Assembly (NCBI GenBank): GCA_008682415.1
Contig: VANK01000001.1
Location: 1,240,001-1,304,000, forward strand
Direction of reading: 5' to 3'
DNA from: Acidobacteria bacterium AB60
GTDB lineage: Bacteria; Acidobacteriota; Terriglobia; Terriglobales; Acidobacteriaceae
DNA: 64,000 nucleotides
Shown one piece after another: positions 40,939 through 62,681 of the stretch. The notes under the pieces were generated by a model. It was not told where the DNA came from. It searched no databases and saw only the letters and a list, made by a program, of their open reading frames with translations. How positions within the stretch are numbered: position 1 is the first letter of the stretch; every line of letters starts with the position of its first letter. The translations under genes and the position numbers were made by a program.

Positions 40939-41484
40939 TCAGTCTACCGGGATGCCGGCGATTGAGAAAGAACCGATGTGCACATCGACCTTGTCGCCGG
41001 GGTGCACGATCTTGCCCTCGTTTCCGAAGACCATCCAGTAGGTGCGGTTTTCGACGGGCGGTGCGGTCTGCCGAAGTTGACCGATCTTTTCCATGACGGG
41101 AACGGTCAAGCGAGCTCCGCTCTTGCGATCGAGCACGTAAGGCTGAAATTTTTTCTCGTTGAGAGGTGCGGCCTTGGCCGCATCGATCACGTTATATCGG
41201 AACTCGAGCATGTGGCCGGAGGAGACGATGTGGATGCCGAGAATATCGACGCCCCAGTTGCGCTTGTAGTACGTGGCCTCGCGCATTCTCCATGCCTGGA
41301 TGGCGTTGAAGATGTCTTGGCGGGTGGACGGTGAGGGACTGGAGGCGATCCGGGCGGTTTCAGAAGCAGGCCGGTCACTTTCCAGCAGCCTCTGCGCGCG
41401 GGCGCTGCGGGAGGAAGCCCCGTTGCCCGCGAAGATGATCGCGAGCAACGGGAAGACGAGGCAGGGCTTGTTCAACGGGATCAT
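40939..41484 (-). CDS. small secreted protein of unknown family, coupled to the giant surface protein
   Basis: The ATG at 41484 overlaps the giant gene's stop (ATGA), so the two are translationally coupled; the longer frame to 41631 covers the giant gene and is rejected. The 181-residue product has a signal peptide (MIPLNKPCLVFPLLAIIFAG, cleavage near ARAQR). The soluble domain has GVDILGIHIVSSGHMLEFRY, then PYVLDRKSGARLTVPVMEKIGQLRQ, then WMVFGNEGKIVHPGDKVDVHIG. It looks like a compact beta-sandwich. I cannot name the family. The Met, His and Lys content does not show a clear metal site. Its context suggests an exported partner of the copper-oxidase operon. Confidence 0.75.
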   Translation of the reverse strand: MIPLNKPCLVFPLLAIIFAGNGASSRSARAQRLLESDRPASETARIASSPSPSTRQDIFNAIQAWRMREATYYKRNWGVDILGIHIVSSGHMLEFRYNVIDAAKAAPLNEKKFQPYVLDRKSGARLTVPVMEKIGQLRQTAPPVENRTYWMVFGNEGKIVHPGDKVDVHIGSFSIAGIPVD

Positions 41485-44400
41485 CTTGCTACCCCATTGA
41501 GCGACACAACAACCGGAGACGAGGACTGATCGTATCCGATGGTGAGCGTGCCGGTGCTTGTTCCGGGAGCGGCCGGCGTGGTGAACGTGACCGCGACCGT
41601 GCAGGTAGCTCCGGAGACAAGGTTGATGCAATCCGATGTGGTGGTGAACAGGGGGTTGCTGCTGACAGGGGTAATGCCGGTGGCAGCGGTGTTGCCCTTG
41701 TTGGTGACCAGCACGGATTGGGCGACGGGGGTTCCGCCCGCCGCGGCGGTGAAGCTAAGAGCCGCGGGCGACACGACCAAGTAGCTGCCCGATCCCGTAA
41801 GGCTCACGGTCTGGCCTGCGATGGTGAGGGTGGCCGCGAGCTGACCGGTAGCGTTGGGAGTGAATGCAACCTGCAGCGTGCATTGGCCGTTGGCCGGGAT
41901 GTTGAACCGGCAGGTACCGCCGCGAGCAATGGAGAAGGCATCCGGGTTATCGCCACTGAACGCAAGCCCATTGACTGGGATGGCGTTTCTTGAGCTGTTG
42001 ACGATTGTGAGAGTCTTCGGCGCAGTGGCCGCGAAGATGGGCTGGGTGCCGAAGGAGAGCGCAGCCGGAGCGACGCTAACGGTGGAGCCCGTTCCGCTGA
42101 GGGAGACGAGCGGAACGTTATTGACGGTCAGGGCGCCGGTGCGGTTCTGGGGGAAGTTGCCCGGCGCGAAGGTGACACCAGCGATGCAGGTGCCACCCGC
42201 GTTGAGGGTTTGCCCCTGGCATCCCGTGAAGGCGAAGCCATTGCTCGCCGCGAGCGTGAGCCGCTGCGCGGTTGTGCCGACGTTCTGGAGCGTGACCGAC
42301 TGCGGCGCGCTGGCGGTGTTGAGGAGGACCGAACCGAAGGAGAGCTGGTTCGGACTGGCCGTGATGGTGCCGTTCACACGGGTTCCGGTCAAGCTGACAA
42401 CCTGACTGCCGGCACTGGAGGTGACGGTCAGGGTAGCGGTGCCGAAGCCGGTGGGAGCGGGGTGGAAGGTGACGTTCAGCACGCAGGTGCTTCCTCCGTT
42501 GAGGATCTGCTGCGCGGCGCAGGTGCTGCCGGCCGCGGCGGTGTACTGCGGGCTGGAGAAGGCGAGAGAGTTCACGGTGAGCGCCGTCGTGCCGGTGTTG
42601 GCCACTGTGACCGACAGCGGACCGCTGGTGGTGTTGACCGGTACGTTGCCAAAGGCAAGCGAGCCCGGCGTAACGTAGAGCTGCGGCAGCACGCCGTGGC
42701 CCGCGAGGGATACAGACTGCTGGTGGCCCGCGCCGTCGGTAACCGTGAAGGTCTGGTTCCTCTGGCCCGTGGAGTTGCCCGGGGCGAAGGTGATGCTCAG
42801 GGTGCAGCTGGCCTGCGCGCCGAGATTGAAGCCGCAGGTGCTGCTGGTGCGAGCGAAGGGAGCCGCGATTTGCCCAATGCCGACGGTGGTGCCGGTGGCG
42901 CCGGTGTTGGTGATGGTGATGACGGTCGGAGCGCTGGTGGTGTTTAGCGCGACACCGCCGAAGTCGACCGCGCTCGGGCTGATGACCAGTCCAGCTGCGG
43001 GGACCGATCCGCTGAGAGCGACGGACTGCCCAGCGATGTTGAGGCTGGCGGCAAGGCCGTTGGTCGACGCGGGCGTGAAGACCACGTTGATGATGCAGCT
43101 GTTTCCGACTGCCAGGTTTCCGCTGCAGGTGGACGTGTTCTGGACAGCGAAGGCGAGGCTGCCAGTGATGGCAGGCGTGACAGCAACCGCTGCGGTGCCG
43201 TTATTCGTGACGGTTACGACCTGCGCACCGCTGCTGGTGTTGAGGAGTTGAGGAGCGAAGACGAGCGATGCCGGAGCGATCACAAGTCCCGAACCGGTGC
43301 CGCTGTATTCGTCCGCACCGATGTCGTACGCGCCGCCGATGGGCCGGTGCTGTCCGTCAATGTCGCTGGCGGGAGCAAAGCCGGTGAGGAAGCTGCCGAC
43401 ATTGCCTGCATTAAAGGCCGATCCCGCGGCGGCAGCGAGGTGATAATCGCCGAAGGAGACGCCGTTCGCATCGGTTTGCGAAAGCGGGCCGTAGCTCAGC
43501 GAGACGAAGTTGCCGGCCTCGTCCAGCGTGGCGGATACAGAGATGTTGGGAGACGGCAGGAACGGCTGCTGTGGTTCCCAATATTGACCGAACTGGGTCC
43601 GGGGTCCATTGCAGTACTGCTTGGCCAATCCGGGTGCTGTGGCGACGTTGTGCGCGTTGGGGTAGAGGGTGACGTCCGTCAGGACCGAGTATGACGGCTT
43701 GAGGCTGGCGAAGGTGGACGTTGGCGAGAGGTCCCCGATGACGCCGAGGTCCCAGTACTTGCTGCCGTTCAGGCTGCAGGCGTAGGTCGGGTTATCGGGA
43801 AGAACGGTGCAGTTCTTACCCGAGTCGGCGACGTTGTTCGAGGAGCAGAGCTTGCCAGTTCCGGAAGAACCGTCGAAGAAGAAGGAGCGGTTCTGCCAGA
43901 TGATGTTGTTGAGCAGGCTGGCGGGAATGGAGACAGCGCGGGCGAGATAGGCGTTCTCCGCAGCGTTCCATCGAGCAAGCTGCTGTTGATACTGCTGGTT
44001 CGTTTGCCCCGGCTGCTGCACCGGACGCGCTCCGGGATTGGACGCGCCGTACGCGCTGAGGAGCGCAGGCGTGGTGTAGTCGCTGCTGATGCCTGCGGGA
44101 CTGGGAGTTCCGGTCATGGGGCCGGCGTTGGCGCCGATGACGGCTCCGGCGATGCCGGTGCTGTCATTGGAGCTGATGGTGTTGTTGATGATGGAAGTAT
44201 TGGTGGCGTCGGCGAGGGCGATGCCACCCCCGGCCCATCCGGCCACGTTGTTCACGACCATGTTGTTGGTGAGGGTGACCTTGAACCCGGCGGTGAAGCG
44301 GCTGACCTCAGAGCCGTTGACGTACTGCAGACGGATGCCGCCACCGCTGCCGCCCTGAGCGAAGTTGCCCTGAATGACGTTGGAGTCAACCGTGACGTTC

Positions 44401-47400
44401 CCAGTGCCGAGAGTCAGCGCCGTTCCTGTCGGCGGTTCACCCTCGATGGCGAGACCGCCGCCATTAGTTGCTGAGGTCTGGCTGTAGCTCTGGTTGAAGA
44501 GGATCTTGTTGTTGGCGATGACGCCGTTGAGGCTGAGGCCGAAATGGGCGAGGCCGCCTCCGTCACCGGAGCTGAAATTCCCGCAGATGAAGTTATAGTT
44601 GACCAGGTAGTTGTCTGTGCCAGTGCAAATGGAGATTCCTCCACCTGCGCCTGCTGAGGAAGCTGCCGTCGCGCCGGCTGCCGCATTGGCTTCCACGGTG
44701 CCATTGGTGGTCACCGCGTTGTGGTGGATCTTGACGTTGGAGTCGTAGTTATACGGTCCCTCGCCCACCAGACCCTCGAGATAGGGCTGACCGATGCGGA
44801 TGCCACCATTGTAGGTGCCGGCGTTGCCGAAGACGCGGTTGTTGGAGATTTCCAGGTTGGTAGCCCAGCCGTTGACGTAGATGCCGCCGCCGGAATCGCC
44901 GCCCGTAACGCTGAGGCCGTCGATGCGGGAGGCGTGATTGGAATAGCTGTTAGGGCCGTAGGTGGTGCGTCCGAAAAAGCCGGCTGCAGCGTCCTGCTTG
45001 CCGAGAACCGTGATGCCGGCGCCCTCTTCAGTGCTGAGAACGCTGGGTTCGAGCTGGATAACGCCACCGGTGACCTCCTGGCCAGGAAGAGGATCGACAA
45101 TGGCCGGAAGAGTTTGATTGCCCTGCGCGTCGATGCCGAAGAGCGCATTGATCTTCGCCCGCCAGTTCTCGAGCTTCTGGGTGGGGTACTTGGTGGCATT
45201 GATGGTGACGGAGGGAGCGCCGACGCCCTGCAGACGAACGGGCTTCCACATGATGACGAGTTCCGGATAGTTGCCTGCCTGGAGAAGGATCAGATCCCCG
45301 GGGTTAGCGGCGTCGATCGCATCCTGAATCGGCGTCGCCAAACCAGTGTCGGTGGCGGCGTTCGATGGAGAAACGTAGATCGGCACACGATATCCGGGCT
45401 TGGTCGAATCGTCGATGGTGATGGTCACGGTGTCGACGGACTTGACACCGTTGTCACCGCGGGTGATGCCCAACTCGTAGGCGCCCGTCGCAAAGGTGGA
45501 GGGCACGGTTACGGTAATCACGCCGTCGCTCCAGAAGACGTTGGCGGGGCTGATGGCAGTGTTGCCGAGCATGATGGTGCCCTTGGTGGCGCCGAAGCCG
45601 AAGTCCCGGGTAACGAGTTTCTGCGCGGCATTGGCAGCGCCCGTGAAGTTCTGGGGGCCGCTGTAGTCGGGGTTAGGGATAAGAGCTTTGCCCAGCGAAT
45701 AGATGGTCAGAGTCATCGTCTTCGCCTTGTCGAGGTACGGACCCCACTTGCCATTCCCATCCACTTCCTTCACGGCCGGCGTGCCCGTGGGATAGGCGCA
45801 GTCAACGGGGTTGTACTTGGCGGCAAAAGCCGCCACTGGAAGGACCGGTGTATCGAGATAGGTGGTGATACCCGGCATGAAAGGCCACGTATAGCAGAAG
45901 TTGCTGTACATGGGGTTGTACATGGGGTCGGTGACCATCTTGCCCGAGCCGGCCGGATCGAGAATCGGACCCGGATCGTTCATGCAGGTGATGAGCATGT
46001 TCGGGGAGTAGCCGCTCGGATTGGGAACATTAGCGTCCCAAGTGGATGGCGTGAGCCCGTTGAACTGTCCCCACTTGTCGGTGTAGACGCGCTGAATCTC
46101 GATGCCGTTGAAGTCCTTGATCGAGACTGGCGCGTTGGGGAGAGCCTCCTTCTCGCCGAAGCTGGGGGATACCTGGTTAAATTCGGCGGCGGCGTCGTTG
46201 AGCATCATGCCGGTGAAGTGCGCAGCGATGGGTGCCGGCGTGAACACCTGGAAATCGGCGTTGGCCTGGCTCTGGTCTTGGAGAAGCACTTCTTTGCGGT
46301 TGCAGAGATTGCGCGACTGCCCCGCGAACGGTGCGACCTGCTGAATGTCGGGGAACAGGTTAAGGTAGTCGGGGACAATGTGTGTCTCGCCCACGCACGG
46401 CGGAAGCGCGAACTTCTGTGAAGGGATGAAGCTGGCATCCAAGGTCGCTTGATCCGGCAGGATGAAGAGGTTGGTCAAGCTGCCGAACTGCTGCGCGACG
46501 GGAGCGATCCAGGCATCCCCCATGAGAATGTTTTTGTCTTCTTCTTTGACGATCTCGTAGCCGGAGGGAGGAACCACTTCCACCACATACTTGCCGGCGG
46601 GAAGAACGTTGGGATAGGTGAGATTGTTGGGATTGAGAGCCGGGTTGTTATTCGCAGGGCTCGGCTTGCAAATGGTGCAGTTCGCCGAGGGGAATGTGTA
46701 CCGGCCATCGTATTGGGCAGGCTGAATCTGGTTGAAATTGTGCATGCCGTCGTAGCACTTATCCACCTGGTTGCTGCCGATGGTGAACTGGACGAAGGGA
46801 TCGCTGGGATCCTGGCCAGGACAGTGCATGTTCGGCACGTTGTCGTCCCAACTGCTGGTTGTGGTGCTGTCAATCAGCTTGAGTGAAGTGGTGCCGTCAG
46901 GATTGGTCGTTTCCTGATAAAGATTGACGGGGACGCGCGGAACGGCTGGTTCCCAGGAAAACTGAACTTCGAGGCGCGGATCGTCGAAACCGCGTGTTGA
47001 AGCGTAATACACCATACCCTGGATACCGCCGGTCTCGCCAGCAACATACGGCGTCTTGCCCCAGTCGATGTTATTGACCTGGCTAATAAAGCCTTGCATG
47101 CCCTCGTAGAGAATCGAACCGTCATCGTAGCGCGGTCCCGTTCCCTGCGGATCCGCAGCGTTGGGCTGAGGATTCAGGATGCCGTTGTACAGCGTGGAAT
47201 ACGGGTTGCTGGGGTTGCAGAAGTTCGGCAGAGCAGCGCCGGCCCCCGTGTTCTGTGCGGTGTTCGATGAGCAATTCACCGGGCCGCCGTTGTCTACCGC
47301 AACTCCCACTTTCGTTCCCTTGAATCGGGTGGTATCCGATTCGGCCACGTACCAGTTGAACAACGGAAAGAGCTGCTGGAACGGAGCCATGCCGTCCGAA

Positions 47401-50400
47401 TCGGTAGTCAGCAGATTGCTAATGCTGCCGTCACGGAAACGAATGGTCATGGGGATCTGCTGAATGCCAGGCTCGCCCGCATCGCGCTTGCCGTTCTGAT
47501 TGAGATCGAGGAAGGCGGATTGGTTGAGTGTCGTAAACCAGCTGAACACCGCCACGTCGCCCATGGCCACCGTCTGCTTATCGGCGTTGCTCGGTACCGT
47601 CACTGCCTTGTAGGCGATAATCTGATCCAGCCACTGATCGAAGACCACCAGCGAGTACGTTCCGGGCGGTATGTTGGCAAGCGTGAACTCGCCGGTAGTG
47701 GGATCGCACTCAGCGAACGCCACGTCCGCGGCCTGGCCGGCGCCGGAGTTGAGGCCGACGTAGCACTGCGTAAAGTTGAGAGCGTCGCGGGTGCCGCTAT
47801 CCCACAGGTTGATCTTTGGCGGCCGATCCATATGCAGGTTCGTCACCTTGCCCGTGATCGTATTCGTGCCGCCCAGTTTCGCGTTTACCTCTTTGATGTG
47901 ATCCGGATTCAAGAACCCTATGAAGGTGTGGAAGCCCGGAGAGCCGAACTCCTGGAAGTAGGCAGGCTCGCCAACCTTTGCGAAGGCGTCCTGATTGAAC
48001 GTGCCTTCCAGGGTCGAGACCTGGTACCACTTCTCGCCCTTGCCGTCGCGCACAGCGCCCGGGAATGCGGCTACGTCATAGCGCATAGCCATCAGATTCT
48101 TGACCAGCGCCATGCCCGCCAAAGGCGAGCCGTCCGGACAGGTGATAATCACGCCGGTTGGCGTACCCGGCGGCACAGAGCCGGGGCAATCGGGCTGACC
48201 GAGCAGCGCATTGCTGAGCGGCTGACCCGTCGCGTCGTAGAAGACCTGTCCGGCTGGATCGCCGGTGCTGGAGCGCACGTCGAAGATCTTGATGTCGAAT
48301 CCGCCAAGACCGGGTTCGCCTTCATCTTCGTCGCCGTTAGTGGGGTTGTTGTCTTCGAAGATAAAGATGCTCAACTGGGCCGGCGCCAGGGGCGACGGTT
48401 CCAGCTTAACGGTGACCGGAGCGCTTGCTCCCGTGAACTCGCTGCCACCCGTGGTGTGGGCGCTGCTGCTGGCGTCGCCAGGAAGAATGGAGATGTAATA
48501 CCGACTGTTAGGATCGCCCGGAGTGACGTTGGGGAGCTGGACCTGGTCAGGAGTGCTGTAGGGCTCGCGCGGCGCAGCCGCACCCATCACCGTCTGCGAA
48601 GCACCACAGCTGAGCGGGCCGGTGCAGCCGGTTGCAATGAGGGGCATGTAGCTCTTGTGAAAATTGGTGCCGAGGCTCTGCGGCGGGTTTCCGGCCGGGC
48701 CGGCCGATTCCGTCGTATCCCGGGGCCATGTCACATCCTGCTCAATCGTCCACTTGTAATCCAGCGGCGTAGGCAGGCTGGCCAGGCTCTTCGCATCCAC
48801 CAGCGACACGACGGGCCCGTTGCCGGCGGGGAAGTTGAGAGTGATTGTTCCTGAAGCCGTCTGGCCCTGGGCGTTGGTAGCGGTATAGGGGAAGCTGAAG
48901 ACTGCAGCGCCGGCCGCATTGGAGCTAGCGGTGAGGGAGCCGTCGGCGTTGAGCGTAACAGTGGCGATGGCCCCATTCGCAGAAAGAGTGAAGGTCTTGC
49001 CTGCAGTGAGCCCTGTTCCGCTCGGCGCAACGCTCAGCTTGTATCCCTGCGAGTCCGTAACGTGCGCAAGGATGCCGGGCGCGGAGACTTTCAGGAGCGA
49101 GCGCACATTGCTCTGAAAGGTCCAATCATTCGCGGTCAGAGTGCCAGACACTGCGGTGACGTTGAGGTTGACGGTTGCAACCATTGCATTGTTGCCGTTG
49201 CCGAAGTAGGTGAATGTGTCGTTCACCGGCGCGCCCAAAGGCGTATAGGTGAAGGTTCCGTCGGCTTTCAGAATCAACGCACCGTGCGAAGGCGAGGTGA
49301 GGAGCGCAGCCGTGTTGATGCCGATGTCATTGGCCAGGACGTTGTTCGAGAACGATGTGGCATTGTGCGGGAGCACGTACGTGTCGTCCACAACGTGCGG
49401 CGTCATGGCTCCTGCCAATCCCGCGCCCGCGACCGTACCGCCGTTGATAGAGAGGTAGGCCTGAATGCCGCCATCGGGACGGTTGCCATTTGAGAGGCTA
49501 AGCTGGCGATCGAAGATGGGGAAGACGGCCGGGGTGTAGGCGGCGGTGGTATTTGGGGCCGCGGGCGTCACCGCCGGGTGTACAAGCACCTCGATCGTCT
49601 TACTGGCTGTAAGGAGAAGCTCAGTCTGCACCTTGGGAACGCCCGGCAGCACGTTGCCATCTTCGGCGACGAGCGACATAGGCAAATTCAGGGTGGCGGG
49701 AATATGCGTGCGCAAGCCCGCGTTGGCAAAGCGCAGCAGGAGATTACTCGAGGCAGCGACACCGCCCGTCTGAAGGGTCGTCGGAGCGGTGCGATCGAAC
49801 GCGTGCCCATTCACGAGAAAGTAGAACGGGCGGTAGTCCACGGCCGGCGGATACTTCGTTTCGTCACCCTTGGCCAGATCCACGGCAGCATTCTGCTTCG
49901 GATCGATTTCGCTGAGCAGCACTACCTGGTCCGCGTCATAAGGTAAATCGGCGAGAGCCGAGCCACCCGAGGGAAAAGCTCCGGGGTGAGATTTGCCTGG
50001 AGTAAAGGGAGAGGCGGTTGGCTCGTTGGTCACAACCAGCACGCCGTAGAGGCCCATGGGCTCCTGGATGGATGGGTGCGTTCCGGTTTCGTACAGGTAC
50101 GTACCGGGGCGGAGGTTGGACCAGGTATAAACTGCGGTGCCTCCGTTGGCGGCAGTTTCCGTGCCAAAGGACTGCACCCGTTGCGGCTGAGCAGGCGGAC
50201 TAAAGGTTCCGTTGCTCGACGCAGGCCAAGTGGTGAGGGACTGGCCCGGGTGCGCCGGGCTATCGGTTTTGGTTGGCGTGCCCAGTCCGCCGCCCCACTG
50301 CCCCAATATGGTGATGGATGTGGGTGTCGGCAGGTTATTGGTGAGTTCGATCTCAAGGGGGCCTGGTTTGACCACGATGGTGGGACCGGGAGCCCAATTG

Positions 50401-50615
50401 GCCGGCGTGGCGCTGCATGGATCGGGGTTGAGACCGCTGCTGGTGCACACATAGCCCCACATGGGGATGGTCTTGCCATCCGGCATGGTGGTCGAAGTCG
50501 GCTGCGCGGCAATCGCAATCTTCGGCGCGGCGGTTCCGGTCAGATCGACTGTCTGGGCAGAACCGGTCGCGGCGGCCATCAAAAGGGTCGCAAAGGCAAA
50601 AAAAAGCTTCTTCAT
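41481..50615 (-). CDS. giant exported multidomain protein: degenerate multicopper-oxidase domain, SdrD/Cna-B modules, beta-helix, ASH repeats
   Basis: The ATG at 50615 (GAGAGA upstream) gives about 3044 residues; GTG 50627 is an alternative. Order, with rough residues: signal peptide (1-22); two cupredoxin-like domains (25-400) homologous to the adjacent oxidase but without copper ligands (GTYLYETGTHPSIQEPMG in place of YHSH, RTHIPATLNL in place of HPFHHHG); Ig/VCBS-like modules (410-600); SdrD/Cna-B-like modules (FLDLNQNGKRDAGEPGI near 1030, YVVEVVPPSGYEI near 1345); an IPT-like domain (near 1680); a right-handed parallel beta-helix (1745-2250, many N-N-x-I/V turns); a choice-of-anchor Q element (DIDGQHRPIGGAYDIGADEY, near 2430); and six ASH/choice-of-anchor-D repeats to the end. 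No sortase motif or membrane anchor is seen. It lies 47 bases after the second oxidase gene. Confidence 0.88.
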   Translation of the reverse strand: MKKLFFAFATLLMAAATGSAQTVDLTGTAAPKIAIAAQPTSTTMPDGKTIPMWGYVCTSSGLNPDPCSATPANWAPGPTIVVKPGPLEIELTNNLPTPTSITILGQWGGGLGTPTKTDSPAHPGQSLTTWPASSNGTFSPPAQPQRVQSFGTETAANGGTAVYTWSNLRPGTYLYETGTHPSIQEPMGLYGVLVVTNEPTASPFTPGKSHPGAFPSGGSALADLPYDADQVVLLSEIDPKQNAAVDLAKGDETKYPPAVDYRPFYFLVNGHAFDRTAPTTLQTGGVAASSNLLLRFANAGLRTHIPATLNLPMSLVAEDGNVLPGVPKVQTELLLTASKTIEVLVHPAVTPAAPNTTAAYTPAVFPIFDRQLSLSNGNRPDGGIQAYLSINGGTVAGAGLAGAMTPHVVDDTYVLPHNATSFSNNVLANDIGINTAALLTSPSHGALILKADGTFTYTPLGAPVNDTFTYFGNGNNAMVATVNLNVTAVSGTLTANDWTFQSNVRSLLKVSAPGILAHVTDSQGYKLSVAPSGTGLTAGKTFTLSANGAIATVTLNADGSLTASSNAAGAAVFSFPYTATNAQGQTASGTITLNFPAGNGPVVSLVDAKSLASLPTPLDYKWTIEQDVTWPRDTTESAGPAGNPPQSLGTNFHKSYMPLIATGCTGPLSCGASQTVMGAAAPREPYSTPDQVQLPNVTPGDPNSRYYISILPGDASSSAHTTGGSEFTGASAPVTVKLEPSPLAPAQLSIFIFEDNNPTNGDEDEGEPGLGGFDIKIFDVRSSTGDPAGQVFYDATGQPLSNALLGQPDCPGSVPPGTPTGVIITCPDGSPLAGMALVKNLMAMRYDVAAFPGAVRDGKGEKWYQVSTLEGTFNQDAFAKVGEPAYFQEFGSPGFHTFIGFLNPDHIKEVNAKLGGTNTITGKVTNLHMDRPPKINLWDSGTRDALNFTQCYVGLNSGAGQAADVAFAECDPTTGEFTLANIPPGTYSLVVFDQWLDQIIAYKAVTVPSNADKQTVAMGDVAVFSWFTTLNQSAFLDLNQNGKRDAGEPGIQQIPMTIRFRDGSISNLLTTDSDGMAPFQQLFPLFNWYVAESDTTRFKGTKVGVAVDNGGPVNCSSNTAQNTGAGAALPNFCNPSNPYSTLYNGILNPQPNAADPQGTGPRYDDGSILYEGMQGFISQVNNIDWGKTPYVAGETGGIQGMVYYASTRGFDDPRLEVQFSWEPAVPRVPVNLYQETTNPDGTTSLKLIDSTTTSSWDDNVPNMHCPGQDPSDPFVQFTIGSNQVDKCYDGMHNFNQIQPAQYDGRYTFPSANCTICKPSPANNNPALNPNNLTYPNVLPAGKYVVEVVPPSGYEIVKEEDKNILMGDAWIAPVAQQFGSLTNLFILPDQATLDASFIPSQKFALPPCVGETHIVPDYLNLFPDIQQVAPFAGQSRNLCNRKEVLLQDQSQANADFQVFTPAPIAAHFTGMMLNDAAAEFNQVSPSFGEKEALPNAPVSIKDFNGIEIQRVYTDKWGQFNGLTPSTWDANVPNPSGYSPNMLITCMNDPGPILDPAGSGKMVTDPMYNPMYSNFCYTWPFMPGITTYLDTPVLPVAAFAAKYNPVDCAYPTGTPAVKEVDGNGKWGPYLDKAKTMTLTIYSLGKALIPNPDYSGPQNFTGAANAAQKLVTRDFGFGATKGTIMLGNTAISPANVFWSDGVITVTVPSTFATGAYELGITRGDNGVKSVDTVTITIDDSTKPGYRVPIYVSPSNAATDTGLATPIQDAIDAANPGDLILLQAGNYPELVIMWKPVRLQGVGAPSVTINATKYPTQKLENWRAKINALFGIDAQGNQTLPAIVDPLPGQEVTGGVIQLEPSVLSTEEGAGITVLGKQDAAAGFFGRTTYGPNSYSNHASRIDGLSVTGGDSGGGIYVNGWATNLEISNNRVFGNAGTYNGGIRIGQPYLEGLVGEGPYNYDSNVKIHHNAVTTNGTVEANAAAGATAASSAGAGGGISICTGTDNYLVNYNFICGNFSSGDGGGLAHFGLSLNGVIANNKILFNQSYSQTSATNGGGLAIEGEPPTGTALTLGTGNVTVDSNVIQGNFAQGGSGGGIRLQYVNGSEVSRFTAGFKVTLTNNMVVNNVAGWAGGGIALADATNTSIINNTISSNDSTGIAGAVIGANAGPMTGTPSPAGISSDYTTPALLSAYGASNPGARPVQQPGQTNQQYQQQLARWNAAENAYLARAVSIPASLLNNIIWQNRSFFFDGSSGTGKLCSSNNVADSGKNCTVLPDNPTYACSLNGSKYWDLGVIGDLSPTSTFASLKPSYSVLTDVTLYPNAHNVATAPGLAKQYCNGPRTQFGQYWEPQQPFLPSPNISVSATLDEAGNFVSLSYGPLSQTDANGVSFGDYHLAAAAGSAFNAGNVGSFLTGFAPASDIDGQHRPIGGAYDIGADEYSGTGSGLVIAPASLVFAPQLLNTSSGAQVVTVTNNGTAAVAVTPAITGSLAFAVQNTSTCSGNLAVGNSCIINVVFTPASTNGLAASLNIAGQSVALSGSVPAAGLVISPSAVDFGGVALNTTSAPTVITITNTGATGTTVGIGQIAAPFARTSSTCGFNLGAQASCTLSITFAPGNSTGQRNQTFTVTDGAGHQQSVSLAGHGVLPQLYVTPGSLAFGNVPVNTTSGPLSVTVANTGTTALTVNSLAFSSPQYTAAAGSTCAAQQILNGGSTCVLNVTFHPAPTGFGTATLTVTSSAGSQVVSLTGTRVNGTITASPNQLSFGSVLLNTASAPQSVTLQNVGTTAQRLTLAASNGFAFTGCQGQTLNAGGTCIAGVTFAPGNFPQNRTGALTVNNVPLVSLSGTGSTVSVAPAALSFGTQPIFAATAPKTLTIVNSSRNAIPVNGLAFSGDNPDAFSIARGGTCRFNIPANGQCTLQVAFTPNATGQLAATLTIAGQTVSLTGSGSYLVVSPAALSFTAAAGGTPVAQSVLVTNKGNTAATGITPVSSNPLFTTTSDCINLVSGATCTVAVTFTTPAAPGTSTGTLTIGYDQSSSPVVVSLNGVAR

Positions 50616-50662: not shown

Positions 50663-52168
50663 TTACTGGGTCTCGTCGATGGCGGAGGCGCACCCTGACT
50701 TAGCCACCCGGCAGGGGGCATCGATGATCAGCATCATCATCATTCCTCCGGGGAACACGTCATTGGTGGTGATCTCGCGTTCGTCGTGGGAGTGCCACAT
50801 ATACGCGTAGCCCGCCCCGGGGTTCACGCCGTCCGATCCTGGAGGGAGGCCAGGGCCGCCGTCGCCCAGATACGGCGAGCCGCCGTACCAGAGTCCGTTC
50901 GCCACGATGTTCGGATCGGCCTGCGTGATGGGGAATGGCTTACCGTGATCGGGGCAGTACTCATAGGTTGCCGTATCGAAGGGCATCGTCGACGAGATGG
51001 GGGTGCAGGTGTGCGCAACGTTGGGCCCATAGACGTCCCAGTTCAGGCCCTGTCCTGTCCAGGTAAAGATGCCATCCAGAGACTGGCCCGAGACCGTGGG
51101 CACAGTAAAGACGAGCGGACCTGCGAGGCTGGTTCCATCGGGAGCGAGCAGAAGATTGCCGTCCCGCGCCAGCACGCGGATGTGGTTGCCGTGATGATGG
51201 AAGGGATGCTGCAGGCGTCCCTGGCCGATGACCCGCATCAGTACCTTCTCGCCGGGGTGCATGTGAGGGTTGCCGTTGTAGGGCTGATTCGGATAGGCCA
51301 TTGAATACGAGGCATCCATGTCATCGGGCATCGAACGCCCGTTCACGAGAAAGTAGCTCGGGAGATACGGCTCGGTCTCGACGGCGATGGAAGGTGCGTT
51401 GGCCTGCACCTGTGCCTCCACCTGCTGGTGGACAGCGAGCTTCATCTCAGAGAACTGAAACAGGTACTCGCGATCGAAGCAGGAGAGTGCGTGATCGTAC
51501 GCGGCACCAGGGTAGCCGGGTGAATCGAGCGCCTGGGGGACGCTTGCGGCACAACCAAGCTGGGCGGGCGTCTTTGCCGGATAGACGATGATGGCGCCAA
51601 ACAGGCCCATCTCGATCTGCAGGTCGGGACGGCTGCCGCTGTAGTAGGCATAGGTCCCTGGCTTGGTTGCCGTGAAGGTGTAGCTCACGGCGGTGCCCGG
51701 AACCGTCACGTTTTGTAAATTGACGGTGGTGGGCGTGGCTTCAGCGGCGAGGACGCCGGGAACGCCTCCTGTGGAGTTCACGGAAAATCCCGGAAAGACC
51801 ATTGAGGTGTTGCCGGCCGATGCGGGCAGCATGTTCGTGAGGTTCACAGTGACGGTGTCCCCCTCGCCGACGATCAGCGTGGGACCGGGTATCTGGATGT
51901 TGGGGCACGTTCCTGCGAAAGGAACGAAGCCGGGGTTGGAGCCTACGGAGCAGCTGTAGCCCCACGAGTAGATCATGGCGCCGTCGGGCTGCGAGATGTA
52001 GTCAGCCTTGGCGGTCAGGTTGAAGGTCAGGGACTTACCGGGTGTGCGATCCCCAATTCCCGGCACTGCGGCTCTAGCCGACGGCACAATTACCGCCATC
52101 AGCATGACTGCGAAGATCGCGATACCTCGCGTTTTCGTCATTTTCATTGTCAACACCATGCGATCCAT
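50663..52168 (-). CDS. exported cupredoxin protein carrying the type-2/3 His motifs of a multicopper oxidase
   Basis: The ATG at 52168 follows GAGGAG, with only 9 bases after the upstream gene. The 501-residue product has a signal peptide to about residue 33 (PSARA). The first cupredoxin (45-200) has lost its ligands: KPGTYAYYSGSRPDLQIEMG takes the place of the WYHSH motif. The second carries HPFHHHGNH (residues 321-329) and YMWHSHDERE (H459, H461). The Cys of the type-1 site is replaced by Ser460, so this protein alone cannot hold type-1 copper. The upstream gene encodes the missing half. It is probably periplasmic or extracellular, and its substrate is unknown. Confidence 0.85.
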   Translation of the reverse strand: MDRMVLTMKMTKTRGIAIFAVMLMAVIVPSARAAVPGIGDRTPGKSLTFNLTAKADYISQPDGAMIYSWGYSCSVGSNPGFVPFAGTCPNIQIPGPTLIVGEGDTVTVNLTNMLPASAGNTSMVFPGFSVNSTGGVPGVLAAEATPTTVNLQNVTVPGTAVSYTFTATKPGTYAYYSGSRPDLQIEMGLFGAIIVYPAKTPAQLGCAASVPQALDSPGYPGAAYDHALSCFDREYLFQFSEMKLAVHQQVEAQVQANAPSIAVETEPYLPSYFLVNGRSMPDDMDASYSMAYPNQPYNGNPHMHPGEKVLMRVIGQGRLQHPFHHHGNHIRVLARDGNLLLAPDGTSLAGPLVFTVPTVSGQSLDGIFTWTGQGLNWDVYGPNVAHTCTPISSTMPFDTATYEYCPDHGKPFPITQADPNIVANGLWYGGSPYLGDGGPGLPPGSDGVNPGAGYAYMWHSHDEREITTNDVFPGGMMMMLIIDAPCRVAKSGCASAIDETQ

Positions 52169-52177
52169 CGCGTCTCC

Positions 52178-53599
52178 TCACTTCACGACGATTTCGGTCA
52201 TCATGCCGCCGAAGTTTTCATTGAAATTCGACAGATGATCGAGGTTAGAGCTGTAGAGGAAGTAAGTGCCTGGGGGAACATCGGTCGCGTCAAGGATCAC
52301 GTCCGCTGATTCGCCTCCGCCCAGCGTGACGGAGTTGGTCAGGTAGGTCATATCATTGCCGGCCATGTCGCGAAGAAGACGCGCATCGATACCGACTACG
52401 CGCATGGGGATTCCCACCGTAGCGAGAGTGGTGAACTCGGTCACGCTGAGGTCGGAAAGGCGCAGCAGGGCGCGAGTCTGGCCGGCGCTCTTGTTGATTG
52501 TGATCAACGTCGGCAAGGGCTGGCTGGGGCGCGACTGGCCGTCGGAACCCTCGGTTTCCATGGGCCCCGCACTCACGGTGTCCGGATAACCGCGGCCGCT
52601 CAGCAGGAAGTACTTGTCTTTCATGCCGGCGAAGCTCTCAGGATTGAAAGTGGTGCCTACGTAGTGGAAGAAGGGATCGAAACCCATCATCTGTACGGGG
52701 AACTCGACGTCGTAGCGGGTAGAGCCATCACCATCGTTGTACGCGTAGAGATTCCCGCGCACCTCGCTGGGATTTGCAGGCACGGGTGTCTGCCCAGTGC
52801 AGAGGATGTCAGAACAGCCGATTCCGGATGTCGCTCCGGGGGCCTTGGCATTCTCGGTCTGCAGGATAGAGGCCAGGGATTTGCCGGCGAACGAGGGATC
52901 GGATTGAAGGCGATTTTGGCGAGGTCGTACGTACAGTTGTCCGACCATGCCCATTTGCAGGTGCTCAGGCGGCGTGATGTGGCAGTGCCAGAAGTAGGTT
53001 CCAGCGTCCGGGGCGGTGTAGTAGTAAGTGAAGCTGCCGCCGATATTGATGGCCACCGATGCATCCGGCACTCCATCGAAGTACGATGAGGCGTTGGGAT
53101 AGCCGTGGAAGTGCACGGTGTGCTGCTCGAAGAGATCGGGCCGCATGATCATGCCCACGTTGGAGAGAGTCAGGAACAACTCATCGTCTTCGTCCATCGA
53201 GATGAGCGGCGCCGGAGCATTGGCGTTCAACACGCCCACGTTCATCATGTCAGCCGGCCTGACAAGTCCCGTAGCCGCATCGAGAAGGCCGACGGCGCCA
53301 TTAGGGTCTCCACCTCCCAGATTGAAGGTGGTGTTGGTCTCCGTGCCGGAAAGACCGCTCTTGATGTCGGCGAGGCCCGACAACGGACCGAAACCAAAAA
53401 GATAGATTTGCGTGCCGTCGGCCATGGTGGCGAAACCGTCGCCGCCCGAGACCTCCTGACATTTGATTCCCTTACCGGAGGGATGCAAGTTCGTTGTAGT
53501 TGGACACTGGACCCGGAAGGACTGAGCCTTCGCAGCAAGGAGTGACATGCCGAACAAAAGTGCACACAGTGCACAGCGGTGCGTGGATCTCAATTTCAT
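52178..53599 (-). CDS. exported cupredoxin protein carrying the type-1 copper site of a multicopper oxidase
   Basis: The ATG at 53599 starts a signal peptide (MKLRSTHRCALCALLFGMSL, cleaved after AKAQ); the longer frame to 53710 has no export signal. The 473-residue product has one ligand-rich cupredoxin. HTVHFHG (H160, H163, H165) matches the H-x-x-H-x-H-G motif. YFWHCHITPPEHLQMGM supplies H205, C206, H207, H213 and axial M218 of a type-1 site. A second cupredoxin near the C terminus (GTYFLYSSNLDHLSNFNENFGG) lacks ligands. The next gene starts 9 bases downstream and supplies the complementary His motifs. It is the first gene of the operon, under two inverted repeats. Confidence 0.87.
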   Translation of the reverse strand: MKLRSTHRCALCALLFGMSLLAAKAQSFRVQCPTTTNLHPSGKGIKCQEVSGGDGFATMADGTQIYLFGFGPLSGLADIKSGLSGTETNTTFNLGGGDPNGAVGLLDAATGLVRPADMMNVGVLNANAPAPLISMDEDDELFLTLSNVGMIMRPDLFEQHTVHFHGYPNASSYFDGVPDASVAINIGGSFTYYYTAPDAGTYFWHCHITPPEHLQMGMVGQLYVRPRQNRLQSDPSFAGKSLASILQTENAKAPGATSGIGCSDILCTGQTPVPANPSEVRGNLYAYNDGDGSTRYDVEFPVQMMGFDPFFHYVGTTFNPESFAGMKDKYFLLSGRGYPDTVSAGPMETEGSDGQSRPSQPLPTLITINKSAGQTRALLRLSDLSVTEFTTLATVGIPMRVVGIDARLLRDMAGNDMTYLTNSVTLGGGESADVILDATDVPPGTYFLYSSNLDHLSNFNENFGGMMTEIVVK

Positions 53600-54424: not shown

Positions 54425-54567
54425 AAAAGGGACTAGGTCAGCCGCGGAAACCGCGCGCGGATACCCTTGGCTTCAGCTTAGCGTCTCTTTGTGGTCGGGG
54501 AGTCGATAAGATGGCAGTCTGCACCCCTGAGCGTGAGGTTCGAGTGTCTAAAGGTCGACGGGCGACG

Positions 54568-56970
54568 ATGAGGCAACAGAAACCAAAATTCCTGCTGCTT
54601 GTGCTATGCACACTGATGCTGGTCCTCACGGCATGGCCAAGCGAGGCGCAAAGAATGCTCAAGGCTAATGAGCCAGAACACAGGGGGCTCGGCCCTCTGC
54701 TCGATCCCTTGATGCAGAAGGCAGTCACGGATGGGAGCATTCCCGGGGGAGTGCTGGTGGTGGGACATCACGGAACCATCATCTATCGCAAGGCGTTTGG
54801 ATCGCGCTCAGTTGAGCCGCGGCGCGAACCAATGACGGTTGGCACGATCTTCGATCTGGCTTCCCTGACGAAGTGCGTGGCAACCACCACGGGGGTGATG
54901 CAGCTGTTCGAACAGGGGCGCGTCCGGCTTAATGATCCGGTGTCAGCCTATCTGCCGGAGTTCGCGCAGAACGGAAAACAGGACATCACCGTTCGTGAAT
55001 TGATGACGCACTACTCAGGACTCGCCCCGGACCTTGATTTGAGCAAGCCATGGATAGGGCGGGATGCGGCCTTCCAAATGGCCATGGCACAGACGCCAGA
55101 GCATCCGCCGGATAGCCGATTTGAGTACAGCGATATCAACTTTGAGGTGCTGGGATTCCTGGTAGAACGGGTGAGCGGTGAGCCGCTGAATCAGTACGTC
55201 GAGCGACACGTTTTTGCACCGCTGGGAATGCGGCATACGCGATTCCTTCCTCCCGAGGTCTGGCGCAAACAGATCGCTCCAACGCAGTTCGATGAAAATG
55301 GGGCGATGCTACGGGGCCTGGTGCATGATCCAACCGCGCGGCGTATGGGCGGCGTAGCCGGGCACGCCGGACTGTTCGCAACCGCGGACGACCTTGCCGT
55401 ATTCGCGCAGGCACTGCTGAGCGGTGGGCGGGTGATGCATCGCACGACCTTGGAGAAGATGGTCACTCCGCAGCAGCCAGCAAATGCCGCAAACCTGCGC
55501 GGTTTGGGTTGGGACATCGATTCGCCGTTCGCGAGCAATCGCGGCGAACTGCTGCCGGTGGGCTCGTTCGGCCATACAGGGTTCACGGGAACATCTCTCT
55601 GGATCGATCCGGTGACGGACACCTACATCGTGCTCCTGACCAACGCAGTGCATCCGCGTGGCGGGAAATCGGTCGTGAGCCTCCGGGCTCGGGTGGCTAC
55701 GGCGGTAGTGCAGGGTTTGCGGCTCACCGTGCCGGAACAGGAGAAGCTGCGCCTGGCACGTACTACCGGGTACAACGAATCACTGATGGCTGCACGCCGG
55801 ATGCAGCACCGCAATGGAACGGTGAAGGTTGGAATCGATGTTCTCGAGGAGCATGCATTTCACGAATTGCACCCCGACGAACGCCGGCCAGTCAGGGTCG
55901 GACTCGTGACAAACCAGACGGGCCTGGATGCACAAGGGCGACGCACCATAGATGTGCTGGCGCATGCTCCCGGAGTGCAGCTCGCAGCCATCTTCAGCCC
56001 GGAGCATGGGATTGGAGGGGCTGCGGAGACGACTGAAATCGCGGATACTCAGGATGCGGCAACGGGGGTGACAGTCCACAGCTTGTACGGCAGCACGGAT
56101 GCAAAGCGGCGTCCCGATCCTGCTGTGGTGGCCCAGTTGGATCTGCTGGTATTCGATATTGCCGATGTAGGAGTTCGGTTTTATACCTACGAAAGCACAT
56201 TGGGGTACTGCCTGGAGGCGGCAGCGAAGGCCGGAAAAGAGATCGTGGTCCTGGACCGGCCCAATCCCGTGAACGGCGCGTTTGTGCAGGGCCCGGTCGC
56301 CGATAAACGACGAGAAAGCTTCGTCGGCTACGGGCAAATCCCTGTGCGGCACGGAATGACCATGGGCGAATTGGCCCGCATGTACAACGCCGAGAGGGGC
56401 CTGGGAGCGCAGCTGACAGTTGTACCCATGGAGGGGTGGATGCGCGGCGACTGGTTCGATTCCACGGGATCAGGATGGGTGAATCCTTCGCCGAACCTGC
56501 GCAGCCTGGAGGAGGCTACGCTCTATCCGGGAATCGGCATGATTGAGATGTCGAACCTCTCGGTAGGTCGCGGGACCGACACGCCCTTTGAGGTTTTGGG
56601 CGCGCCATGGGTCGACGGTATGGCCTTGGCAAGATATCTGAATGCGCGCGAGATCGCAGGGGTGCGGTTTGTGCCCGTACAATTTAGGCCAACCTCCGCC
56701 GCGTACGCAAGTCAGGAATGCGGGGGCATCCACCTGCTGTTGACGGATCGCGATGCGCTAGACGCACCCGAAGTCGGCTTGGAGGTGGCCGCAGCGCTCT
56801 GGGCCCTCTATCCCGAAAAGTACCGGCCAGACGAGGTTGACACTCTGATGCTAAACAAAGCGAGTATCGAAGCGCTGAAGCGCGGAGAAGATCCGCGGCG
56901 CATCGCCCAGGCTTGGCGGCCGGGACTGGAACGGTTCGAAAAGACGCGATCAAAATATCTTCTGTACTAA
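54568..56970 (+). CDS. serine hydrolase fused to NamZ-type exo-beta-N-acetylmuramidase (DUF1343, GH171)
   Basis: The ATG at 54568 starts a signal peptide (LLLVLCTLMLVLTAWPSEAQ); the longer frame to 54511 is rejected. The product has 800 residues. The N-terminal beta-lactamase/class C domain (about 40-410) has the S-x-x-K nucleophile in LASLTKCV (S100, K103), the Y-x-G element HYSGL and the HTG box in SFGHTGFTG. The C-terminal DUF1343 domain starts near residue 420 (VKVGIDVLEEHAFHEL) and contains IFSPEHGIGG, SLYGST and VLDRPNPVNG, all typical of NamZ. Both halves act on cell-wall material, so a role in peptidoglycan turnover or recycling is inferred. Confidence 0.88.
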   Translation: MRQQKPKFLLLVLCTLMLVLTAWPSEAQRMLKANEPEHRGLGPLLDPLMQKAVTDGSIPGGVLVVGHHGTIIYRKAFGSRSVEPRREPMTVGTIFDLASLTKCVATTTGVMQLFEQGRVRLNDPVSAYLPEFAQNGKQDITVRELMTHYSGLAPDLDLSKPWIGRDAAFQMAMAQTPEHPPDSRFEYSDINFEVLGFLVERVSGEPLNQYVERHVFAPLGMRHTRFLPPEVWRKQIAPTQFDENGAMLRGLVHDPTARRMGGVAGHAGLFATADDLAVFAQALLSGGRVMHRTTLEKMVTPQQPANAANLRGLGWDIDSPFASNRGELLPVGSFGHTGFTGTSLWIDPVTDTYIVLLTNAVHPRGGKSVVSLRARVATAVVQGLRLTVPEQEKLRLARTTGYNESLMAARRMQHRNGTVKVGIDVLEEHAFHELHPDERRPVRVGLVTNQTGLDAQGRRTIDVLAHAPGVQLAAIFSPEHGIGGAAETTEIADTQDAATGVTVHSLYGSTDAKRRPDPAVVAQLDLLVFDIADVGVRFYTYESTLGYCLEAAAKAGKEIVVLDRPNPVNGAFVQGPVADKRRESFVGYGQIPVRHGMTMGELARMYNAERGLGAQLTVVPMEGWMRGDWFDSTGSGWVNPSPNLRSLEEATLYPGIGMIEMSNLSVGRGTDTPFEVLGAPWVDGMALARYLNAREIAGVRFVPVQFRPTSAAYASQECGGIHLLLTDRDALDAPEVGLEVAAALWALYPEKYRPDEVDTLMLNKASIEALKRGEDPRRIAQAWRPGLERFEKTRSKYLLY

Positions 56971-56985: not shown

Positions 56986-57906
56986 TCAGGCGCTCGGAGC
57001 TCGCCACTTCTCGGCGCGTTGCGCTCGGCGTTCCGCGAACTCCCGGGGCGTGGGGATGGGCGAGAGAGCACGACCTGCGAACATATTTTTGAAGAGCGCT
57101 ACCAGTTCCTCATGGATGTGCCCGTTGGAGCCGAGAACTTCGCGGCTGTCGAGCTGAAACGGACCACCAGCAAAATCTGAGAGGCGGCCGCCTGCCTCCT
57201 CGATCAGCAGGAAGCCTGCGGCGGTGTCCCACGGATTGAGGTGAAATTCCCAAAAGGCCTCGAAACGGCCGCACGCGACATAGGCTAGATCGAGAGCAGC
57301 GGAACCTGCGCGCCTGACCCCGTGAGAGCGCAACGTGAATTCCTGGTAGAAGTGAATGTTTGGGTTGTCATGCCGCTTACGGCTGGGAAATCCGGTTGCA
57401 ACGAGCGACTCGGCGAGTTCGGGAATGGGCGAGACGCGAATCGGACGGCCGTTGAGTGTGGCGCCGCGACCGCGTTCGGCACAAAACAACTCATCGAGCA
57501 GGGGATCGTAGATGACCGCTGCGACCAGCGTGCCGTCAGCATGCGGGGGAAGATCAGGGGGACGCTGCTCCAGACCAAGCGAGACGCAGAAATGGGGCAC
57601 ACCGTGGGCGAAGTTGGTGGTGCCGTCGAGCGGATCGACGTACCACCGGAATTCTTGGTGGAGTCCTTCGCGGGTTCCCTCCTCGCCGTAGACGCCGTGA
57701 TCCGGAAAAGCTTCGTTGAAACGCCTGCGGATGAGCTCTTCCACGGTGCGGTCGGCGACCGTCACCACATCAACGTCGCCCTTGTACTCGGTCTCAACTC
57801 CCCGCGCGAAAAAGTCGCGAAGGCGGGCTCCCGCTTCGCGCGCCACCGCGGCGGCCGTGGGCACGAACTGCAGCTCGGCAGGTCCTCCCGGCATGGCGTG
57901 GCTCAC
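56986..57906 (-). CDS. inositol monophosphatase family protein (SuhB-like)
   Basis: The GTG at 57906 overlaps the hfq-like stop (GTGA), so it is coupled to that gene. The 306-residue product has the metal-binding motifs GEEGT, DPLDGTTNFAHG and NPWDTAAGFLLIEEAGG of the Mg-dependent, Li-sensitive phosphatases. The substrate could be inositol phosphate, fructose bisphosphate, 3'-phosphoadenosine phosphate or another small phosphoester; sequence alone does not decide. Its C-terminal tail is longer than in E. coli SuhB. The stop lies 15 bases from the convergent serine-hydrolase/NamZ gene. Confidence 0.88.
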   Translation of the reverse strand: MSHAMPGGPAELQFVPTAAAVAREAGARLRDFFARGVETEYKGDVDVVTVADRTVEELIRRRFNEAFPDHGVYGEEGTREGLHQEFRWYVDPLDGTTNFAHGVPHFCVSLGLEQRPPDLPPHADGTLVAAVIYDPLLDELFCAERGRGATLNGRPIRVSPIPELAESLVATGFPSRKRHDNPNIHFYQEFTLRSHGVRRAGSAALDLAYVACGRFEAFWEFHLNPWDTAAGFLLIEEAGGRLSDFAGGPFQLDSREVLGSNGHIHEELVALFKNMFAGRALSPIPTPREFAERRAQRAEKWRAPSA

Positions 57907-58217
57907 TGGCCGGACCCGCGAGGCGCCGAGACGCTAGTAACCAGCGAGCCTTCCGAGGGGCCGCGGCGCTTACCCGCTTCAGTGATCGTGCGAATCTGGT
58001 GCTTATAGATGAAGAGATTGGGCTTCCCTTCCCTGGTCAGGCGCAGCATTCCGTCATCGAAGTATTCAATCCAGCCTTTGACGGTCTCCCCATCGCGCAA
58101 TTTGACCGAGACCTGCACTCTGCGCTCGCTGAGCGACTTCAGGTACAGCGCTTCCTGGCCCGTTTCACCAGGCGGAGGTGTCTTGGAGCGACGGCGGGAC
58201 GGCAGAGGAGGAGTCAT
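57903..58217 (-). CDS. hfq: Hfq-like Sm-fold RNA-binding protein with extended tails
   Basis: The 104-residue product has the Sm1 segment SVKLRDGETVKGWIEYFDD and the Sm2 segment NLFIYKHQIRTI, close to the Y-K-H-A-I signature (Y71, K72, H73) that binds RNA 3' ends in Hfq. Q21 corresponds to the Hfq N-terminal Gln. About 20 residues precede the fold and about 25 follow; both tails are basic or Ser/Gly-rich. It probably binds sRNA and mRNA as a hexamer. The gene overlaps the phosphatase gene by four bases. Confidence 0.8.
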   Translation of the reverse strand: MTPPLPSRRRSKTPPPGETGQEALYLKSLSERRVQVSVKLRDGETVKGWIEYFDDGMLRLTREGKPNLFIYKHQIRTITEAGKRRGPSEGSLVTSVSAPRGSGQ

Positions 58218-62421: not shown

Positions 62422-62681
62422 GCTCTGAGCAGAATACCGCCTGCACGGTTTAGACGCGCGAGGCGACATTTTAGCAAGTCAATCGGTCCGCCAGCCTCCA
62501 ACTTCCATCCGCGCTGACGAAACGAGTTTCCGGCCGGATTGGAACTGACTCCGGCAACTTTTAGCCGATCACCCTAGCTTCGCGTGAGAGGGAAACACCT
62601 CGACCCCGGAGTACGACCTAACTCGCTCCCCCTGAGGAACGGGCCATTCTGGTTTGCCGTGTCAAGAGCGGGAAAACCCGG

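What the first reader, a model, noticed from the sequence alone, without database searches (positions are those of the whole stretch)
50663..53599. A multicopper oxidase split over two adjacent exported proteins
Seen in sequence: the first protein (52178-53599) carries HTVHFHG and YFWHCH...HLQMGM, i.e. the H-x-x-H-x-H-G and type-1 copper motifs. The second (50663-52168) carries HPFHHHGNH and WHSH, i.e. the remaining type-2/3 motifs, with Ser where type-1 Cys would be. Each protein has one ligand-bearing and one ligand-less cupredoxin domain, and neither holds a full set of four His motifs. Together they do. Known: two-domain laccases and nitrite reductases build the trinuclear site at a subunit interface. 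Inference: the two proteins form a heteromeric oxidase.
Basis: partly seen in the sequence, partly recalled or inferred. Interest (0 to 1): 0.85.

Follow-up and report, generated by a model that had tools for sequence, protein, structure and literature searches.

The report
Copper oxidase split over three proteins
A bacterial copper enzyme that normally assembles from three identical copies is here encoded as three different proteins, two of which each keep half of the oxygen-reducing copper site, so they probably only work together, tied to a giant surface protein.

Summary
P1 (52178-53599) keeps the type-1 site and half of the trinuclear site; P2 (50663-52168) keeps the other half. The eight P1 ligands are invariant in all 82 P1 sequences aligned. 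P2 H321/H324/H326/H459/H461 are invariant in every correctly extracted P2, and both sets hold in a distant second clade. P1 and P2 are each full-length relatives of homotrimeric type C two-domain multicopper oxidases, decayed in complementary domains.

(1) The next gene (41481-50615) starts with a third, ligand-less two-domain cupredoxin chain (P3N). P1, P2 and P3N are ancient paralogues, so the likely enzyme is a P1:P2:P3N heterotrimer with one active site. (2) P3N is fused to a ~2,600-residue adhesin/beta-helix module (P4), which is a separate upstream gene or fused to P1 in other lineages. (3) A small exported protein, P5, follows.

In about 830 sampled genomes P1 and P2 occurred together. 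No P1-P2 fusion was found.

The cluster is known: it matches Slit_1816-1818 of Sideroxydans lithotrophicus, induced on magnetite. The papers read do not mention the half-sites. AlphaFold read-through models folded the domains but did not place the chains, so assembly is inferred. The substrate is untested; extracellular Fe(II) or Mn(II) is my best guess.

The parts
52178..53599 (-). P1: exported two-domain multicopper oxidase chain; domain 1 holds the type-1 Cu site and half of the trinuclear site, domain 2 has no ligands
53105..53122 (-). P1 H160-T-V-H163-F-H165: type-1 His (H160), type-2 His (H163), type-3 His (H165)
   Evidence: invariant in 82/82 and in both clades; roles assigned by alignment to 3g5w/2zwn
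52946..52987 (-). P1 H205-C206-H207...H213...M218: type-3 His pair, type-1 Cys, His and axial Met
50663..52168 (-). P2: exported two-domain chain; domain 1 has lost its copper ligands, domain 2 holds the complementary half of the trinuclear site
51188..51208 (-). P2 H321-P-F-H324-H-H326-G: vestigial type-1 His position (H321), type-2 His (H324), type-3 His (H326)
   Evidence: aligned to HAMHSHGHD of 2zwn
50786..50797 (-). P2 W-H459-S-H461: type-3 His pair
   Evidence: aligned to FIHDH of 2zwn
49416..50615 (-). P3N: signal peptide and third two-domain cupredoxin chain without copper ligands, N-terminal part of the 3044-aa third protein
41481..49415 (-). P4 module fused to P3N: Ig/cadherin-like domains, SdrD_B-like domain, right-handed beta-helix, six choice-of-anchor-D/ASH repeats
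40939..41484 (-). P5: 181-aa exported protein of no known family, start overlaps the P3 stop (ATGA); conserved downstream gene of both clades

Best explanation
A secreted heteromeric multicopper oxidase built like a homotrimeric type C two-domain oxidase, with the three subunits encoded by three diverged paralogues. P1 domain 1 supplies the type-1 copper (H160, C206, H213, M218). An electron taken there from the substrate passes along the H205-C206-H207 bridge to a trinuclear cluster. P1 (H163, H165, H205, H207) and domain 2 of P2 (H324, H326, H459, H461) form that cluster at their interface, and O2 is reduced there to water. P3N closes the ring as a ligand-less structural subunit, and its giant P4 tail ties the enzyme to the cell surface or to a solid. 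Shown here: the complementary half-sites, their invariance, co-occurrence, paralogy, gene order and fusions. Inferred from homology: cluster geometry and ring assembly. Guessed: the substrate, most likely extracellular Fe(II) or Mn(II).
For: All 8 trinuclear-site histidines and the 4 type-1 ligands exist once and only once across P1 plus P2, and are invariant across about 90 loci and two clades. Best solved relatives are the homotrimeric two-domain oxidases 3g5w and 2zwn (P1 E=3.4e-16 and 9.6e-14; P2 profile E=6.8e-17 to 2zwn; combined profile E=1.3e-24 to 3g5w). In such trimers the cluster lies between domain 1 of one subunit and domain 2 of the next (PMC13151041). Paralogy: P1/P2 E=1.5e-25, P2/P3N 1.1e-52, P1/P3N 1.5e-21, colinear; each is monophyletic over both clades with support of 0.99 or more. 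In the loci read, P1-P2-P3N always occur in this order. P1 and P2 co-occur in every sampled genome with a strong hit, apart from one cut contig. P4 is separate upstream of P1, fused to P1 (L105), or fused to P3N (window), which links the parts. All three chains of the matching Sideroxydans cluster rise together on magnetite (PMC12016527).
Against: No experimental or confident predicted complex: the two AlphaFold read-through models had pTM 0.51 and 0.53, and their domain arrangement did not match six-domain oxidases (rmsd about 23-26 A). No P1-P2 or P1-P2-P3N single-chain fusion was found. A 1:1:1 stoichiometry is assumed. The Sideroxydans ES-1 proteins themselves were not compared by sequence; the match rests on gene order and description, and on Sideroxydans MAG loci L021/L124.
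Confidence: 0.8

Rival explanations
1. P1 and P2 make a heterodimer, or a ring of P1 and P2 only (such as a 3+3 hexamer), with the shared trinuclear site; P3 is a separate surface adhesin made from the same operon.
For: Only P1 and P2 carry ligands. P1 and P2 are the most tightly linked pair (stop-to-start 10 nt in 42 of 84 loci).
Against: P3N is a conserved two-domain paralogue colinear with P1 and P2 and remains a short dedicated gene next to them where the giant part is separate. Known two-domain oxidases form trimers (PMC13151041).
Confidence: 0.15
2. P1 is a blue copper electron carrier (type-1 site only) and P2 an unrelated copper-binding helper; no trinuclear cluster forms.
For: P1 alone holds a complete type-1 site; neither chain alone can hold a trinuclear site.
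Against: The type-2/type-3 histidines of P1 (H163, H165, H205, H207) would have no reason to be invariant, nor would their exact complement in P2.
Confidence: 0.05
3. The system is a laccase-like enzyme acting on plant or soil phenolics rather than on metals.
For: Many carriers are soil Acidobacteria and Paraburkholderia, and a two-domain oxidase from Cellvibrio oxidises phenols (PMC13151041).
Against: The matching Sideroxydans cluster is induced on magnetite (PMC12016527). SCO1/SenC and cytochrome genes accompany it in Sideroxydans MAG loci. This is a rival about the substrate only.
Confidence: 0.35

Closest known systems
Slit_1816-1818 cluster of Sideroxydans lithotrophicus ES-1 (PMC12016527; PMC5566968)
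   Same: Three tandem extracellular cupredoxin genes, two with multicopper oxidase motifs and a third much larger one without them but with adhesin-like domains; small hypothetical genes, SCO1/SenC and a cytochrome follow. Same order in Sideroxydans MAG loci L021/L124.
   Different: The papers treat the two as typical multicopper oxidases; in the passages read they do not say that each holds only half a site, or that the three are paralogous subunits. The window copy has no SCO1/cytochrome gene that I recognised nearby.
Type C two-domain multicopper oxidases (3g5w, 2zwn mgLAC)
   Same: Two cupredoxin domains per chain, type-1 site in the N-terminal domain, trinuclear cluster between domain 1 of one subunit and domain 2 of another.
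   Different: Homotrimers of one gene with three active sites; here three different chains and ligands for a single site.
Six-domain multicopper oxidases (ceruloplasmin; MnxG, 9bxa)
   Same: Six cupredoxin domains, one trinuclear site, other sites decayed; Foldseek matches.
   Different: One polypeptide; MnxG works with MnxE/MnxF (PMC5622069), which have no counterpart found here.
MofA / OmpB
   Same: Large extracellular oxidases proposed for Mn/Fe, with mofC-like and copper chaperone genes nearby (PMC5566968).
   Different: Single-chain; [quoted passage not shown] No MofA sequence was available to test here.

Membership tests
Multicopper oxidase superfamily | Cupredoxin domains related to Cu-oxidase families | tested here: met
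Multicopper oxidase superfamily | Full set of 4 type-1 ligands and 8 trinuclear histidines | tested here: met
   met only by P1 and P2 together, by neither alone
Multicopper oxidase superfamily | Copper content and O2-reducing activity | not testable with these tools
   needs protein
Type C two-domain multicopper oxidase | Two cupredoxin domains per chain, type-1 site in domain 1 | tested here: met
   P1 full-length pattern; P2 two domains without type-1 site
Type C two-domain multicopper oxidase | One chain carries both halves of the site and forms a homotrimer | tested here: not met
   the halves are on different chains
Six-domain multicopper oxidase (ceruloplasmin/MnxG) | Six cupredoxin domains in one polypeptide | tested here: not met
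   three separate genes in all loci read; no fusion found
Slit_1816-1818 type cluster | Gene order P1-P2-giant P3 with small genes, SCO1/SenC and cytochrome behind | tested here: met
   met in Sideroxydans MAG loci L021/L124; in the window P1-P2-P3-P5 only. ES-1 itself not compared by sequence.
MofA/OmpB | Sequence homology to MofA or OmpB | not tested
   no MofA/OmpB sequence at hand; PMC5566968 reports non-homology for the ES-1 proteins

The most novel reading that the evidence does not exclude
A heterotrimeric multicopper oxidase with one active site: a living intermediate between homotrimeric two-domain oxidases and six-domain oxidases such as MnxG and ceruloplasmin. Gene triplication and site decay have happened but fusion has not, and the complex is anchored to a giant surface module so that it can oxidise solid or extracellular metal.
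Probability: 0.45. Interest if true: 0.8.

Novelty: new variant of a known kind. Interest (0 to 1): 0.62.

Why it matters
The published scheme for ceruloplasmin-like enzymes is that a two-domain oxidase was triplicated into six domains and lost most copper sites (PMC3600357). This operon shows triplication and site loss in separate genes, so the scheme becomes testable on a living system. It also changes how a candidate solid-Fe(II) oxidation cluster should be studied: the two proteins listed as separate oxidases in Sideroxydans would be inactive alone, so single-gene expression would fail and tests must use all three chains.

Tried and rejected
1. Chain placement by AlphaFold. P1-P2 was modelled as one chain by reading the P1 stop as a residue: window (pLDDT 66.8, pTM 0.51) and L106 (pLDDT 80.4, pTM 0.53). 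Domains fold, the mutual position is not determined, and no coordinates were available to measure His-His distances. 2. Search for P1-P2 fusions: none. An apparent P3N match in another frame of L044 is an artefact of a wrongly extracted row in my own P3N alignment. 3. P2 H329 as a ligand: rejected, Asn/Asp in the second clade. 4. Ser of WHSH as a lost type-1 Cys: rejected, type C domain 2 has HDH there. 5. The idea that the finding is a fused MofA or MnxG split by an error: rejected, the same split is found in all loci. 6. A first scan for SCO1 genes used a wrong motif and found none; it was repeated correctly.

Full report
WHAT IS THERE. On the minus strand of the window lie four adjacent genes: P1 (52178-53599, 473 aa), P2 (50663-52168, 501 aa), P3 (41481-50615, 3044 aa) and P5 (40939-41484, 181 aa). 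All four begin with what reads as a signal peptide (by eye). P1 to P2 is 9 nt. P5 starts inside the stop codon of P3 (ATGA).

THE SITE IS SPLIT. P1 domain 1 has HTVHFHG and HCHITPPEHLQMGM; its domain 2 has none of the ligands. P2 domain 1 has YSG where the HCH would be; its domain 2 has HPFHHHGNH and WHSH. Against solved structures, P1 is closest to the two-domain oxidases 3g5w (E=3.4e-16) and 2zwn (9.6e-14). The P2 profile aligns with both domains of 2zwn (E=6.8e-17), HPFHxHG falling on HAMHSHGHD and WHSH on FIHDH. In these enzymes the type-1 site is in the N-terminal domain. PMC13151041 calls that arrangement type C and describes two-domain oxidases as trimers whose trinuclear cluster is coordinated by domain 1 of one subunit and domain 2 of its neighbour. 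P1 has kept domain 1's ligands and P2 has kept domain 2's. Counting residues: type-1 site H160, C206, H213, M218; type-2 H163 (P1) and H324 (P2); type-3 H165, H205, H207 (P1) and H326, H459, H461 (P2). That is exactly one complete set.

CONSERVATION. One scan of genome contigs gave 80 loci, from Acidobacteria and mostly Beta- and Gammaproteobacteria, including Sideroxydans, Ferrovum, Rhodoferax, Paraburkholderia, Burkholderia and Cupriavidus. In every locus with enough DNA the order is P1-P2-P3. P1 ligands are invariant in 82/82 and P2 ligands in 85/86 rows, the exception being a mis-extracted row. The stop-to-start distance between P1 and P2 is exactly 10 nt in 42 of 84 loci. The window's genome carries five copies.

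A SECOND CLADE AND THE THIRD SUBUNIT. Wider searches gave distant relatives (L101-L107, L110-L113). There the order is giant P4 - P1 - P2 - short P3N; in L105 P4 is fused to the N-terminus of P1. In the window's clade P4 is fused behind P3N. P3N is thus a separate two-domain cupredoxin chain, without copper ligands in either clade. Profile comparison shows P1, P2 and P3N to be colinear paralogues (E=1.5e-25, 1.1e-52, 1.5e-21). In a tree of 51 sequences each of the three is monophyletic over both clades with support of 1.0, 0.992 and 0.998, so the triplication is older than the split of the clades. In clade B the P1 ligands and P2 H321/H324/H326/H459/H461 are again invariant, while P2 H329 is not. 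The movement of P4 from one partner to another is a fusion-type argument that P1, P3N and P4 work together. P5 is found behind P3 in 56 ORFs of both clades and matches no Pfam or NCBIfam family.

CO-OCCURRENCE. In 217 genomes of the window's phylum, 240 of the order of a Rhodoferax MAG and 379 of its phylum, every genome with a strong P1 match had a strong P2 match next to it and the reverse. The only exception, G194, is a contig that ends inside P1. Weaker matches (below about 80 bits) are other oxidases. No open frame contains both P1 and P2. Among relatives in the same genus the system is patchy (G000, G008 and G229 of those sampled).

HOW IT MOST LIKELY WORKS. Model: a P1:P2:P3N ring in the manner of the homotrimeric two-domain oxidases. 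Only the P1-domain-1/P2-domain-2 contact carries ligands; the other two contacts are decayed, as in ceruloplasmin. Electrons enter at the type-1 copper in P1, pass through Cys206 to the shared cluster, and reduce O2. The P4 module (Ig/cadherin-like, SdrD_B, beta-helix, choice-of-anchor D repeats) would hold the complex at the surface. Shown: ligand partition, conservation, paralogy, linkage. Inferred: contact geometry and ring. Guessed: substrate. AlphaFold on P1-P2 read-through chains gave folded domains but no reliable chain placement (pTM 0.51; pTM 0.53; Foldseek rmsd about 23-26 A to six-domain oxidases). This is neither support nor refutation of the joint site.

WHAT IS KNOWN. PMC5566968 mentions three tandem extracellular MCO genes with a mofC-like gene and a copper chaperone in Sideroxydans lithotrophicus ES-1, not homologous to MofA/OmpB-type proteins. 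PMC12016527 names them Slit_1816-1818: two with typical motifs, and a large third without them with adhesin-like domains. All three are higher on magnetite, and similar clusters are noted in Paraburkholderia, Ralstonia, Anaeromyxobacter and Steroidobacteraceae. My Sideroxydans MAG loci L021/L124 show P1-P2-P3-P5 followed by SCO1/SenC and a cytochrome c gene, the same order. SCO1-like motifs also occur near the cluster in L065, L077, L081, L090, L099, L110-L112 and L123 (Pfam-confirmed only in L112 and L124). The cluster is therefore known; the half-site logic, the third paralogous subunit, the mobile P4 module and the deep co-conservation were not found stated in the papers read (subscription papers could not be searched). 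PMC3600357 gives the evolutionary scheme of triplication of a two-domain oxidase with site loss; this operon looks like an unfused version of it.

VERDICT. Observation confirmed; interpretation right in its core but incomplete; new variant of a known kind.

Noticed in passing
window 40939-41484 (-): P5, an exported 181-aa protein with no Pfam or NCBIfam match, is a conserved downstream member of the operon in both clades; in another copy of the same genome (L121 9307-10896) three small exported-looking ORFs of 165-176 aa stand in a row behind the giant gene.
   Followed up: partly
own genome: G000 C1, C4, C11 (two), C32: Five full copies of P1-P2-P3 in one genome, while most sampled genomes of the same genus have none; the system looks accessory and mobile or repeatedly lost.
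   Followed up: partly
L105 5857-12699 (-): P4 giant module fused to the N-terminus of P1 in one 2281-aa frame, the opposite attachment to that in the window.
   Followed up: yes
window 50663-53599: P2 residues 302-304 and 407-408; P1 residue 312: Conserved non-core residues: P2 H302-x-H304 (in the window clade), P2 D407-H408 and P1 H312 (both clades) could form a further metal or substrate site near the interface.
   Followed up: no
window 54511-56970 (+): One 819-aa protein joins a beta-lactamase-family serine hydrolase to a complete NamZ exo-N-acetylmuramidase.
   Followed up: no
window 61702-62469 (-): MoaD-like (ThiS family) and MoaE domains fused in one 255-aa protein.
   Followed up: no
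window 57903-58217 (-): Hfq protein with an N-terminal extension rich in Pro/Ser/Arg.
   Followed up: no
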